This document shows, piece by piece, positions 20,879-52,539 of a stretch of DNA of 64,000 bases (its first letter is position 1; each line of letters opens with the position of its first letter). The stretch comes from Dipodascopsis uninucleata var. uninucleata (taxonomy: Eukaryota; Ascomycota; Lipomycetes; Lipomycetales; Lipomycetaceae). The stretch spans positions 1-64,000 of the forward strand of contig JAJLTO010000006.1 in assembly GCA_030568195.1 (NCBI GenBank). The letters run 5' to 3'. Below the pieces are notes generated by a model that saw nothing but the letters and a program-made list of their open reading frames with translations, made no database searches and had not been told where the DNA came from. A program made the translations under genes and the position numbers.

Positions 20879-22106
20879 TTACAGCTTCTGCATAGCAGCC
20901 TATATTCATTTCCATTAGAATTATATCTCATTAAAAAATAAAATAAAAAACTTACCACATCAGTAGACTGAACATGGTCCTCGTCCTCCTCGATAGCAGA
21001 CTGAAGTTCATCCATAGAAACTTTCTCATCCTCGACAACAAGATTGATCTGAAGTTTCTTAATACCGTAACCAACAGCAATCCACTGATGAGCACCCCAG
21101 ACCAGACCATCCATCTCAATGCCTTTAACATGAGCTAAGAGCTCATCCAAATCAGTTTCATCGTCCCATGGCTTAACCTCTAGAGTAATAATTGACTTAG
21201 CAGCAGGCTTTGGGCCCTTAGAAGCCTTCTTAGCCTGGTACTCAGCCAGTCTCTGAGCCTTCAACTTTTCAGCCTCAGCATCTTCTTCCTCGTCATCAGA
21301 GCCGAAAAGATCGACATCATCATCATCGTCGTCCCCTTCTGCAGCAGTGGTAGAGACTGCCTCCTCTACAAGTTCAGGTCCAAAACTACTGATATCTGCA
21401 GAAGCGTCGCCAGGTAACGAAGAACTATAAGCCATATGAGTGCTATTCTCACTTAAAGTTCGAATAATTGCGATCTACTTACAATTCACTTTCATGAGCT
21501 GCGATAGTAGTGTACCACCGAGCAGCATAAGGATACTTCTGGCTATCAGGAGCGGAGCCAACAGCCTTGAAAACAATCACATCAGCCTGAGACGGAGTGT
21601 ACCTATAGTGCAAGACCAACGTCAGTCGATTTCTATGGAATGGAATTACTATATCGAAAATAGTAAACGATTGCCACAAAGTATATCAGATAACATGAAG
21701 TTATATGGATTTGTATTCATATGTATGCGGTGTCTTAAGCCGCGATCATAAACACGGACCATAGATTATCATCATTTTGAATTGTGACCACAGTACACAA
21801 ACAAGTGAAAAGATATTAGATCTAAATAGAGCAATCTACCGTATAATATCATTCGCTTTTAAAAATAAAAATTCCAACAACAATGAGAAATGAGATGTAA
21901 ATACCCTGAAATAAAGCTCTCTTTCAAGAGAAATTCGTTCAGCCTTGAAAGACCTGACAATATCATAAAATTAGCTACATATCTTTCTCATCAAAATACA
22001 CGCTGTATATGGCGTATCATGGCTAGCTAAACAGATAACCAGATAATCAGCTACAGTGTTAATACAATAACATACCGATAGGAGTTGAAAGATCACCAAA
22101 AGCCAT
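20879..22106 (-). CDS. EFB1: Translation elongation factor eEF1B alpha (EF-1-beta), guanine nucleotide exchange factor
   Basis: It reloads eEF1A with GTP during translation. Five exons: 22106-22076, 21953-21905, 21602-21483, 21442-20956 and 20899-20879, giving 235 residues. The N-terminal GST-like part includes [20 protein letters not shown] and [19 protein letters not shown]. An acidic linker of Asp/Glu runs ([18 protein letters not shown]) follows. The C-terminal exchange domain has [35 protein letters not shown] and the terminal AAMQKL, supplied by a last exon of only 21 bases. The second intron (21603-21904, 302 bases) is long and holds a C/D-box snoRNA, as the yeast EFB1 intron does. The third intron is only 40 bases. 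Confidence 0.97.
21680..21780 (-). ncRNA. snR18: C/D-box snoRNA, U18/snR18 type, in an eEF1B-alpha intron
   Basis: It lies inside the second intron of the elongation factor gene, in the same sense as the host. The C box ATGATGA is at 21775-21769 and the D box CTGA at 21689-21686, about 90 bases apart. Bases 21761-21750 (minus strand TGGTCCGTGTTT) are perfectly complementary to the conserved large-subunit rRNA stretch AAACACGGACCA. They sit directly upstream of a D'-like ATGA (21749-21746). The fifth guide base upstream of D' pairs with an A, matching the adenosine methylated by yeast snR18 (25S A649). From family knowledge, yeast snR18 also sits in the EFB1 intron. The terminal stem is weak (CAAA with TTTG, plus an outer CACAA/TTGTG), so the exact ends are approximate. 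Confidence 0.87.
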
Positions 22107-48326: not shown

Positions 48327-51300
48327 TTAGTCCAATTCAATTTTTGGCTTCCTTTGCTTTTTTAGTTTGCTCTTTTTTCCTATTGTATCTCCAGCACTTA
48401 GAGAATTGAGTCGCATTATATCATCTTGCTCGAGAAACTTAATCCACGACTTCTCAAAATCATCAAGATCCTCACACCAAATATCTTTAGCTGTCTTCTT
48501 TAATAAAATATTCAATTCTTCTTCCTTATGGTCTCGTTCTTTAAGAAGTCGCTCATAGCGCTCGCGAGTAAGCGACCATATTGGCATCCCCAATAGATAA
48601 TCGTAAGAAGCAACATCGGCCGTATTCATCTCTTCGTCGCTATCGTCGGCTTTTGTTGTAAGATCTTCCTCGTCATCAATCGGACCAAATTTATTTGATT
48701 TCGAAATTGGTGGGAACTTCAATTTCTTCAACTCCAGCACAAGCTCCACACGTCTGCGGTTCGAAACTGAGAGTTCCTTACTAATTATCATTTTAACAAA
48801 TCTAGCTTGACTAGAAAGCTTGTCTAGTTGAGCCTCTAAACAACTAGCTAGATGATCTTTACGGCGCTGATAGTAATCTAGTCGTACGTAATAAAAATCA
48901 CGTAGAATGTCTTCCACAGAATCGTACTTTTTGATTCGACCTTGAGTATCAAATGCCACCATATTATTCAAGCTTATAGTATTGGTCAATTTAAACTTGT
49001 TAAGAAGACCTTCGCTAAGAGCCTTTTCCATCTCCTCATGACTTAAAGTAACCACAAATTTAATGTCCATTTTATGCTGCTCCAAGACATCCTTGATCCA
49101 TGGCTTAGTCTTTTCAGAACCTGCCATTCCACCTAATAAGAATTCTTTAACAGTAGCGGTCCACTGACGTATAGGCAACTCTGTGATTTCAAGTGTAGAA
49201 GCATCAACTTGACTGATAACACCAGAGACTTTGTATTTATCTGGCGCAATTCTCTCTATGGTACCATGCCAATTCCTATACCAAGGATCCATAGGGACCA
49301 TGTTGTCATTATCCATCAATCGCCTAAGATTGTTGATTATGTCTAAAGGATTGTAATTCGGAATTGAAGTACTCCAACCAGTACCAATACCTTCGGTACC
49401 ATTGACCAAGATCATAGGGAGAATAGGAAGATACCACTCTGGCTCAATTTTTTTGTCATCGTCAGTCAGATATTGGAGAACAGCATCGTCATCTTGATGA
49501 AAGACTTTTCTAGTAAGAGGATTAAGCTCGGTAAAGATGTACCTCGGGGCAGAAGCATCCTTACCACCAGTCGCTCTTGTTCCAAAACAACCATTGGGAA
49601 GTAGAAGGTTAAGATTATTACTACCAACGAAGTCCTGGGCCATGCTGACAATCGTCTGTACAAGAGATTGCTCTCCGTGATGATAAGCCGTCTGCTCCGA
49701 TATATATCCTGCAAGCTGAGCAACACGTATATCAGTCTTCAAATTCTTTTTAAAGCATCCAAAAAGAACTTTACGTTGTCCAGGCTTCAAGCCGTCAAGT
49801 ACACATGGAATGGATCTGATGTTATCCGCCATGCTAAACAGTATCAGTTCCTTATTTATAAAATCTCCAATAGGAACTTTTGGTAGTGTAGGGTCCAAGC
49901 ATGTTCCTGGTTTATACGTCCTCAACCATTCTTTCCTTTCATCTGCCTTCTTTTTTGAGAAAGCAAGATCGATCAGTTCTCGATCACCGTCCTGTATAGC
50001 ATGAAATTCTTTCAGATGACGGTCAAGTTGTTGAAAGTACTCGCGTCCTTCTGAAGGCATAGATGTACCCAAACCCTTGTAATATTTATGTTTCCATGTG
50101 CATTTTGATCCTTCAGTCTCTTTCCAGTATTCATATTCGGGCATAGTATAAAATGGGATTACTGTTTGCTGTCTACCCTTTGTAATAGTGACCTTAACAA
50201 TTGGAGTGATAAATTCAATTAAAAAGCCTGGAATATCCAGAAGACCTGGAAAAGTTGATTCGATAAAATTAATTAGTAGACCTTTAATATGACTCCCATC
50301 ATGATCTTGATCAGTAAAAATCATTAAATGTCCATAACGAAGGTCCTTGGTACTTGTATAATGCTTTTTGTGCTGAAGACCCATAATTTGTTTAATAGCT
50401 TGGATTTCAGCATTTTTCATAATTTGCTCATGAGAAGCTTCACGGACGTTGAGAAGCTTTCCACGAAGAGGATATACTCCATAATAATCTCTGCCAACAA
50501 CACTGAGACCGGCAACCGCAAGAGCTTTTGCCGAGTCACCCTCGGTTAAGATAAGAGTGCATTTATAGCCCTCCTTAGTACCTGCTTTATTGGCATCATC
50601 TAATTTAACCAATCCAGTGATTCTATTCCTCTTTGATCCGTCAGTCTTCTTTAATTCCTTCTCAGCATTCTGAGTCGCCGTATCTTTCAAACTTTCCACA
50701 ATGTTGGTCCTGAGAACCTTTTTGAAAAACTCATCAGTGAGCACGCACTTGGAACCAAATGCAGATGGTCTAGTTGTCATTTGTTCTTTAGTCTGAGAAG
50801 TAAACGCTGGATTCTCGATCAAACAATTCACGAACAAAAATATGTTGTTTCTGATTTGCTGCGGCCTAATATTGTTACTCTTAAATTTCTTTTTCATATG
50901 TTCTGTAAGCTTAGATACCAGTTGGTCGCATATATAATTAACATGAGTGCCCCCAGCAGACGTAGCAATTGAATTCACAAATGAGACTTGATTAAAATTA
51001 CCGTCAGAAACAGCAAATCCAATTTCCCATCTGTCATTCACAATTTCATGGACAATAACAGGTTTAGGCCCAGTAGGGATCTGAATTTTCTTCTCACCAG
51101 TATCTACACTATCCTCGGAGTCTGATTCAGATTTTTTGACTTCAACATCACCTGTATACGCATTTAAAGCCATTACGTACATCTCGATATACTGTTTAAA
51201 GTTGCGAATCTTGAGGCGCTCATTGTTAAGATATACTTTCACATTCTTGACAGTACCTGCGAGATCATACACGCGTCTCATCATAATTCCAATCAAGTCA

Positions 51301-52539
51301 TCGTCTAATTCTGTCATACCGAATAACCTTAAATCAGGTTTGAAAGAAATCCTAGTGTACTCTTCTCCTTTCGAGTTTTCGGTAATCTTTGGTTTGCCAA
51401 CTTTACTCATATTAGTTGACCAAACTTGTTTATATTTCTTTTTCGTGTTCTTATCGGCGGTTTCGACAGTGAATTCAGTGGAGAATATGTTACAAAGCTT
51501 CGCCCCGTAGCCATTTCGACCGCCAGTGACCTTTTTCTCTTCGTCGTCATAATTACTAGACGTAAGCAAATTTCCAAAGATAAGCTCGGGTATATACATT
51601 TTCTCTTTTTCATGCATTTCAATTGGAATTCCTCTACCATTATTATAAATCACTATGCTATTTGCGGTCTTGTCAATAGAGACCTTTAGAATATCCATAT
51701 TGGGATCTCTAATCTTATTGTCTGCCGCATTCACGAGGATTTCATCAAAAATTTTGTATAAGCCAGGAACAAATCTAACAGTTCTAAAGGCCATATTACT
51801 GTTACTTTTATCGAAAGTCCACATTTTGTAATCTGTGTATTCTACAGAACCAATGTATGTATCTGGACGCTTTAGAATATGTTCTAACTGAGACAGTTTT
51901 TGATATGTCTCTGAGCTGCTTTTTTGTTTTGTAGCAACTATATTGGCAATTGCTTCAGCAGCTGCAGGTGAGGAATCAGGTAATATTTTATCAGTCGCCG
52001 ATGGAGACGGAAGCACATCAAAATCAACACTCATTTTGTCACCAGCCATAGGAGATGAAAATAAAGTATTCATTTCATTGTTAATAGTCTTCAAAGGCTT
52101 CTTAGGCCCTGTCGTCTTCTCCAGTATAGTCTGCTTCTTTTTGGTTGCACCTGCGGAAGAAGCAGATGCTTTCAGTACGGATGTCTTTGCTTTCATAGGT
52201 GACTTTGTCGTCTTTTTCGTAGCCACCATTTTAGCCTTCTTCGGAGGTGTCTCGAGCTCAAAATCACCATCACCATCATCAGATGGTTCAAAGTCATAGA
52301 TGTCTGATGATGACTCGAACACGCGTTTTCTTGATGCTTCGGCCGCTGCACGACGAGGTGCATTTTTCTTGGGCTATGATAGAACAACAAGTTAATAAAC
52401 GCGTCCAGTAATGACTTATTTTTGTCACATCAAAAATTTTATACTGAGCAATTCAACTTACAGCTGTATTCTCCATTGAGAAATTCTCATCATCATTGAA
52501 GTCGTCTTCTGACGACAAAGAGATCACAGATCTCGGCAT
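48327..52539 (-). CDS. TOP2: DNA topoisomerase II
   Basis: A nuclear type IIA enzyme that passes one duplex through another using ATP. Exons are 52539-52462 and 52373-48327, giving 1374 residues. A lysine-rich N-terminal extension of about 160 residues (ATKKTTKSPMKAKTS, GATKKKQTILEK) precedes the core. The GHKL ATPase has VNAADNK, NNGRGIPIEMH and GGRNGYGAKLCNIFS. TOPRIM has LTEGDSAKALA and FTDQDHDGSHIKGLL. The winged-helix domain has ASAPRYIFTEL with the DNA-attaching Tyr971. The coiled-coil/gate region ends with DDFEKSWIKFLEQD. Only about 30 residues, ending in a basic KKSKLKKQRKPK, follow, so the usual long C-terminal domain is nearly absent. The single intron lies near the start. Confidence 0.97.

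What the first reader, a model, noticed from the sequence alone, without database searches (positions are those of the whole stretch)
21680..21780. U18/snR18-type C/D snoRNA kept in the eEF1B-alpha intron
Seen directly: a C box (ATGATGA), a D box (CTGA) 90 bases away and a 12-base perfect complement to the conserved large-subunit rRNA stretch AAACACGGACCA. That complement sits immediately before a D'-like ATGA, all in host sense inside the 302-base intron. Known: yeast snR18 methylates this rRNA site and lies in the EFB1 intron; the human counterpart U18 lies in another gene (RPL4). Inference: the host-guest pairing is shared by budding yeast and this filamentous fungus, so it may date to early ascomycetes. 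Protein annotation alone would miss this RNA.
Basis: partly seen in the sequence, partly recalled or inferred. Interest (0 to 1): 0.75.

Follow-up and report, generated by a model that had tools for sequence, protein, structure and literature searches.

The report
U18 guide RNA in eEF1B-alpha intron
An intron of a fungal translation-factor gene carries what looks like a well-known small RNA (U18) that guides methylation of the large ribosomal RNA, in the same host gene as in baker's yeast; this is an ordinary, correctly spotted case of a known arrangement.

Summary
On the minus strand, inside the 302-nt second intron of an eEF1B-alpha gene, lie a C box (21775-21769), a 12-nt guide (21761-21750), a D'-like ATGA (21749-21746) and a D box (21689-21686). 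Rfam SNORD18 (U18) aligns end to end at 34.1 bits. That is below its cut-off of 41, but it is the best of three matches in the 16.2-Mb genome (E 8.8e-4; next 22 bits, E 0.88). S. cerevisiae and C. albicans carry snR18 in the same gene. Two further yeast host-guest pairs that I tested are both present above cut-off: snoR38 in eEF1B-gamma and snR39 in RPL7. Most likely it is a working U18 methylation guide released by splicing. 'This filamentous fungus' is not supported: of four ribosomal proteins three score closest to Saccharomycotina, one to Neurospora. So 'early ascomycetes' is not shown. A new member of a known family in its known host. Expression, methylation and the organism's own target rRNA were not seen.

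The parts
21603..21904 (-). Intron 2 of the eEF1B-alpha gene, 302 nt, phase 2 inside codon Gly27 (80 coding nt upstream); host intron
   Evidence: GT...AG, reading frame joins to a protein with eEF1B domains; no RNA data
21682..21780 (-). U18/SNORD18-type C/D snoRNA (Rfam match extent, 99 nt)
   Evidence: RF00093 34.1 bits, model 1-71/71, below the cut-off of 41; best of three matches in the genome
21769..21775 (-). C box ATGATGA
21750..21761 (-). 12-nt antisense guide TGGTCCGTGTTT; the 5th base before D' pairs with the A of AAAC[A]CGG (equivalent of the yeast U18 site)
   Evidence: register counted on the sequence by the D'+5 rule (recalled); target site from the table of PMC3542256
21746..21749 (-). 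D' box, ATGA instead of CTGA
   Evidence: the Tetrahymena TtnuCD18 consensus also reads GUGUUUAUGA
21714..21720 (-). possible degenerate C' box ATGAATA
   Evidence: read from sequence; 5 of 7 bases of RTGATGA; weak
21686..21689 (-). D box CTGA
21782..21788 (-). 5' arm of possible external stem, GTCACAA, 6 nt outside the C box
21673..21679 (-). 3' arm of possible external stem, TTGTGGC, 6 nt outside the D box
   Evidence: with near-equal spacing required, 1.7% of shuffles and 1.5% of window placements do as well; without it 35% and 22%
21621..21627 (-). probable branch site GACTGAC, branch A at 21622, 19 nt from the 3' splice site, 63 nt after the D box
   Evidence: inferred from sequence
20956..22106 (-). 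eEF1B-alpha coding exons 1-4: 22106-22076, 21953-21905, 21602-21483, 21424-20956. A last exon ending AAMQKL-stop follows a fourth intron
   Evidence: last exon read from the sequence printed

Best explanation
It is the organism's U18 (snR18) box C/D snoRNA gene, carried in intron 2 of eEF1B-alpha. Shown: the sequence anatomy, the host gene, and that the U18 match stands out in the genome. Inferred: the pre-mRNA is spliced and the lariat debranched. C and D boxes, perhaps held together by the external 7-bp stem, recruit the C/D core proteins (Snu13, Nop56, Nop58, fibrillarin/Nop1; recalled). Exonucleases trim to the protein-protected ends. The guide pairs with large-subunit rRNA AAACACGGACCA and directs 2'-O-methylation of the A opposite the fifth base before D' (A649 in yeast, A1313 in human). 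The intron has been kept, at least in part, because the snoRNA depends on it.
For: End-to-end RF00093 match with C box, 11 identical core guide bases and D box aligned. Best of three matches in the genome, E 8.8e-4, against 0.88 and 7.5 for the others. Correct guide register. C box 7 bases before the guide, unlike the C13 copy or 18 viral stretches with the same guide. Symmetric external stem, 1.5-1.7% of controls as good. Sense orientation in an intron with 80 coding nt before it; I recall 80 nt for yeast EFB1 exon 1 too, but no call shows it. snR18 is in the yeast TEF5/EFB1 intron (PMC2705663, passage; PMC8522698, passage) and the C. albicans EFB1 intron (PMC2926782, passages). Both of two further yeast pairs tested are here: snoR38 in an eEF1B-gamma intron, 58.3 bits against cut-off 45, and snR39 in an RPL7 intron, 49.7 against 40. 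In Fusarium, U18 falls when the lariat debranching enzyme is deleted (PMC9606315, passages), which fits this route.
Against: Score below the Rfam cut-off (34.1 against 41); no match in the window reached gathering. D' is ATGA. The whole-RNA fold is not more stable than shuffles (z -0.62; 47 of 200 as good). The stem is unremarkable if near-equal spacing is not required (35% of shuffles, 22% of placements). 10 of 14 prokaryote control genomes, where I expect no U18, also give RF00093 matches at E up to 10, none over the cut-off (their scores were not shown). 2 of 18 viral stretches with the guide also have C and D boxes in loose range. The target rRNA was not seen in the assembly. No RNA data.
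Confidence: 0.92

Rival explanations
1. A decayed U18 relic: the snoRNA was once here but has lost function, and another copy supplies U18.
For: Sub-cut-off score, ATGA at D', long inner spacer. N. crassa has two U18 genes (PMC2780460, table passage), so extra copies exist in fungi.
Against: No other match better than 22 bits in the 16.2-Mb assembly (the assembly may be incomplete). Guide, C box and D box are intact. D' AUGA is also in the Tetrahymena family consensus. The length (99 nt) is near N. crassa U18 (89 nt), and the extra inner bases against a 71-position model can explain the lower score.
Confidence: 0.05
2. Chance resemblance: a random 12-mer complement near random C and D boxes in an AT-rich intron.
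For: The same 12-mer occurs once more in the genome by chance; 2 of 18 viral stretches with the guide have C and D boxes in loose range.
Against: Expected 1e-5 for the 12-mer in this intron; correct order, spacing and register; the known host gene; genome-wide E 8.8e-4 before the host is taken into account.
Confidence: 0.01
3. Besides guiding the U18 methylation, the RNA guides a second site from the element before the D box, or the snoRNA-bearing intron regulates eEF1B-alpha splicing. This adds to, and does not replace, the main explanation.
For: The element before the D box is unassigned. Roles of snoRNAs in cis on their host locus are reviewed in PMC11028025 (search listing and start of abstract only).
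Against: No target was tested: the rRNA was not seen in the assembly.
Confidence: 0.05

Closest known systems
S. cerevisiae snR18 (U18) in the EFB1/TEF5 intron
   Same: Same snoRNA family and same host gene; intronic; intron after 80 coding nt here, and 80 nt recalled for yeast
   Different: The host here has at least four introns by sequence; D' is ATGA; the snoRNA was not aligned to the yeast sequence, which was not at hand
C. albicans snR18 in the EFB1 intron (PMC2926782, passages)
   Same: Same guest and host, detected there by tiling array
   Different: Sequence not compared
Human SNORD18 (RF00093), hosted by RPL4 (recalled, and stated in the finding)
   Same: Same family; target site 28S A1313
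   Different: Different host; RPL4 here has a gap of about 114 nt between its two matched exons, and the U18 model finds nothing there
N. crassa CD46A/CD46B (U18; PMC2780460, table passage)
   Same: Intronic U18, target 26S Am635, 11-12 nt guide before D', 89 nt
   Different: Two copies; no host gene named in the passages seen

Membership tests
SNORD18 / U18 (Rfam RF00093) | Covariance-model match over Rfam's gathering score (41 bits) | tested here: not met
   34.1 bits, model 1-71/71, E 1.7e-4 against all families on 721 nt; best of three in the genome; none at gathering in the window. This is a curators' threshold, not a biological feature, so it lowers but does not decide membership
SNORD18 / U18 (Rfam RF00093) | Guide complementary to LSU AAACACGGACC immediately before D', placing the U18 adenosine opposite the 5th base before D' | tested here: met
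SNORD18 / U18 (Rfam RF00093) | Target present in this organism's own LSU rRNA | tested here: inconclusive
   18-mer absent and 12-mer present only at two non-rRNA places; LSU model search unanswered seven times
Box C/D snoRNA | C box RTGATGA and D box CTGA at the two ends | tested here: met
Box C/D snoRNA | Terminal or external stem bringing C and D together | tested here: inconclusive
   7-bp external stem, 6 nt outside each box, predicted in the fold; 1.5-1.7% of controls as good if near-equal spacing is required, 22-35% if not
Box C/D snoRNA | Mature RNA bound by fibrillarin and 2'-O-methylation of target | not testable with these tools
   no RNA data
Yeast-type U18/eEF1B-alpha host-guest pair | U18 in sense in an intron of eEF1B-alpha | tested here: met
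Yeast-type U18/eEF1B-alpha host-guest pair | Same intron position and phase as in yeast EFB1 | tested here: inconclusive
   80 coding nt before the intron here; the yeast value of 80 nt is recalled, not from a call

The most novel reading that the evidence does not exclude
A whole set of snoRNA host-guest pairs of the translation machinery (U18/eEF1B-alpha, snR38/eEF1B-gamma, snR39/RPL7) has stayed locked together since before Saccharomycotina split from Pezizomycotina, so that these introns are kept by their RNA cargo in both intron-rich and intron-poor lineages. Basis: all three pairs are in this genome; Fusarium lists U18, snR38 and snR39 among intronic snoRNAs, but its hosts were not seen.
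Probability: 0.5. Interest if true: 0.3.

Novelty: new member of a known kind. Interest (0 to 1): 0.17.

Why it matters
It adds a genome with at least four introns in eEF1B-alpha to those where U18 lives in that gene, so the yeast arrangement is not merely what was left after intron loss. A practical point: if this is the real U18, as I think, it falls below Rfam's curated cut-off and default annotation would miss it. The general principle, that snoRNA-bearing introns are kept, is already published for RPL7 and NOG2 in fungi (PMC8476143, abstract and passages).

Tried and rejected
Pattern scan of viral contigs for guide plus NTGA: 18 stretches; 2 of 18 have a C box within 40 bases upstream, both at 30 bases, none closer; taken as chance, used only as a control. 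Second and third RF00093 matches (C16, C2): 22 and 18.2 bits, taken as chance. Other Rfam hits on the locus (TtnuCD18, snR49, mir-1545) are far below their cut-offs; TtnuCD18 carries the same guide core. Whole-RNA folding gave no signal. The stem test without near-equal spacing gave no signal. TOP2 against solved structures puts a yeast chain (recalled) first, ahead of human; I know of no Pezizomycotina chain in that list, so I drew no placement from it. Literature: nine searches; I searched 13 of the listed papers by term and saw passages only. In those passages an EFB1/TEF5 host for snR18 was named for S. cerevisiae and C. albicans; host tables and figures (for example PMC4202332 figure 7, PMC5033589 table S1) were not readable. 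The key paper, The fungal snoRNAome (PMC5824354), is not held, nor is PMC108919. So I cannot say that the pairing is unreported in other fungi. A survey of eEF1B introns across Ascomycota was not possible: I saw no eukaryote collection among the tools.

Full report
What is there. The window's eEF1B-alpha gene runs on the minus strand. Exons 1-4 (22106-22076, 21953-21905, 21602-21483, 21424-20956) join in frame to a protein with EF1_GNE and EF-1_beta_acid domains, matching solved eEF1-beta/eEF1B-alpha chains at 2e-40; a last exon (AAMQKL-stop) follows a fourth intron (read from the sequence). Intron 2 is 21904-21603, 302 nt, GT...AG, with a probable branch site GACTGAC whose A is 19 nt from the end. 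Inside it, in sense, are ATGATGA (21775-21769), TGGTCCGTGTTT (21761-21750), ATGA (21749-21746) and CTGA (21689-21686). The finding's numbers (90 bases, 302 bases, 12 bases) are all right; it did not state the strand. Splicing is inferred from sequence only.

Is it U18? Rfam SNORD18 (RF00093) aligns end to end, 21780-21682, at 34.1 bits, E 1.7e-4 against all 4227 families on 721 nt. This is under the gathering score of 41, and a gathering-level scan of the window lists nothing. In the whole genome (16,219,245 bases, 25 contigs) the same model gives three matches at E up to 10: this one at 8.8e-4, then 22 bits (E 0.88) and 18.2 bits (E 7.5). 10 of the 14 prokaryote controls also match at that loose limit, none over the cut-off; their scores were not shown. 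Here the best match is about a thousand times better in E-value than the next in its own genome. The guide 12-mer is expected 1.3 times in the genome and 1e-5 times in the intron; it was found twice in the genome. The other place, at C13, has no C box within 40 bases upstream and no CTGA within 120 bases downstream. Of 18 viral-contig stretches with the guide plus NTGA, 2 have a C box within 40 bases upstream and a CTGA downstream, both with a gap of 30; here the gap is 7. The lower Rfam score is plausibly explained by extra inner bases (99 nt against a 71-position model); N. crassa U18s are 89 nt (PMC2780460, table passage).

Mechanism. By the D'+5 rule (recalled) the methylated base is the fifth base, A, of AAACACGGACCA. 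The U18 site is listed as 28S A649 in yeast and A1313 in human (PMC3542256, table passage; the table of PMC3511168, prints Am647 for yeast). A 7-bp stem, GTCACAA with TTGTGGC (one G-U), begins 6 nt outside each box; with near-equal spacing required, 1.7% of 20,000 shuffles and 1.5% of 5,000 window placements do as well, while without that requirement it is not unusual (35% and 22%). The requirement was set after I had seen the stem. The whole fold is not special (z -0.62). Splicing, debranching and exonucleolytic trimming are inferred from general knowledge and from the fall of U18 in the Fusarium debranching mutant (PMC9606315, passages).

Host and guest. snR18 lies in yeast TEF5 (EFB1), and snR38 in TEF4 (PMC2705663, passage); C. 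albicans snR18 is hosted by the EFB1 intron (PMC2926782, passages). In this genome I tested two more yeast pairs and both hold: snoR38 (58.3 bits, cut-off 45) in an intron of eEF1B-gamma and snR39 (49.7, cut-off 40) in an intron of RPL7, both in sense (exon boundaries read by eye). Whether those introns lie at the yeast positions was not tested. The eEF1B-alpha intron follows 80 coding nucleotides (31 + 49); I recall the same 80 nt for yeast EFB1, but no call shows it. RPL4, the human U18 host (recalled), has a gap of about 114 nt between its two matched exons here, and the U18 model matched nothing there.

I saw nothing in the window that shows a filamentous fungus. phmmer bits for single reading frames of four ribosomal proteins (species of PDB entries recalled): uL3: C. 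albicans 660, S. cerevisiae 648, C. thermophilum 628, N. crassa 616, S. pombe 613. uL4: C. albicans 367, S. cerevisiae 345, S. pombe 339, C. thermophilum 297, N. crassa 295. uL2: C. albicans 522.5, S. cerevisiae 507, N. crassa 477, C. thermophilum 477, S. pombe 433 (an odd entry, 11he, scored 557). eS1 goes the other way: N. crassa 358, C. thermophilum 340, C. albicans 329, S. cerevisiae 303.5, S. pombe 249. So three of four lean to Saccharomycotina and one to Pezizomycotina; an early-branching, intron-rich relative of budding yeasts would fit, but scores are not a tree and the placement stays open. If it is so, the shared host shows conservation within Saccharomycotina, not an early-ascomycete date. 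Fungal conservation of snoRNA-bearing introns in RPL7 and NOG2 is already published (PMC8476143, abstract and passages).

Verdict. Very probably a true U18 gene in its known host; new member of a known kind; low interest.

Noticed in passing
L033:2482-2565 (G000:C10:309801-313121), minus: snoR38 (RF00213), 58.3 bits over cut-off 45, in sense in an intron of the eEF1B-gamma gene: the yeast TEF4/snR38 pair is kept too.
   Followed up: yes
L034:1716-1800 (G000:C6:525030-528164), minus: snR39 (RF01197), 49.7 bits over cut-off 40, in sense in an intron of RPL7: the yeast RPL7/snR39 (snR59) pair is kept too.
   Followed up: yes
L033:2486-2562: The same snoRNA also matches the A. fumigatus family Afu_328 (39.8 bits, below its cut-off of 70), so Afu_328 may be an snR38 relative.
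   Followed up: no
window 48327-52322, minus: DNA topoisomerase II reading frame of 1331 aa without a stop; best solved chain 4gfh at 1626 bits. A long uninterrupted frame, while eEF1B-alpha in the same window has at least four introns.
   Followed up: partly
PDB entry 11he chain L8: A 345-residue chain named 60S L8 matches this fungal uL2 better (557 bits) than the 7pzy chain does (522.5), while the same entry's L3 scores like the mammalian chains; perhaps a wrong sequence in that entry.
   Followed up: no
L005:1501-1512 (G000:C13): Second copy of the 12-base LSU target motif AAACACGGACCA in this genome, without C or D box nearby; looks like chance.
   Followed up: yes
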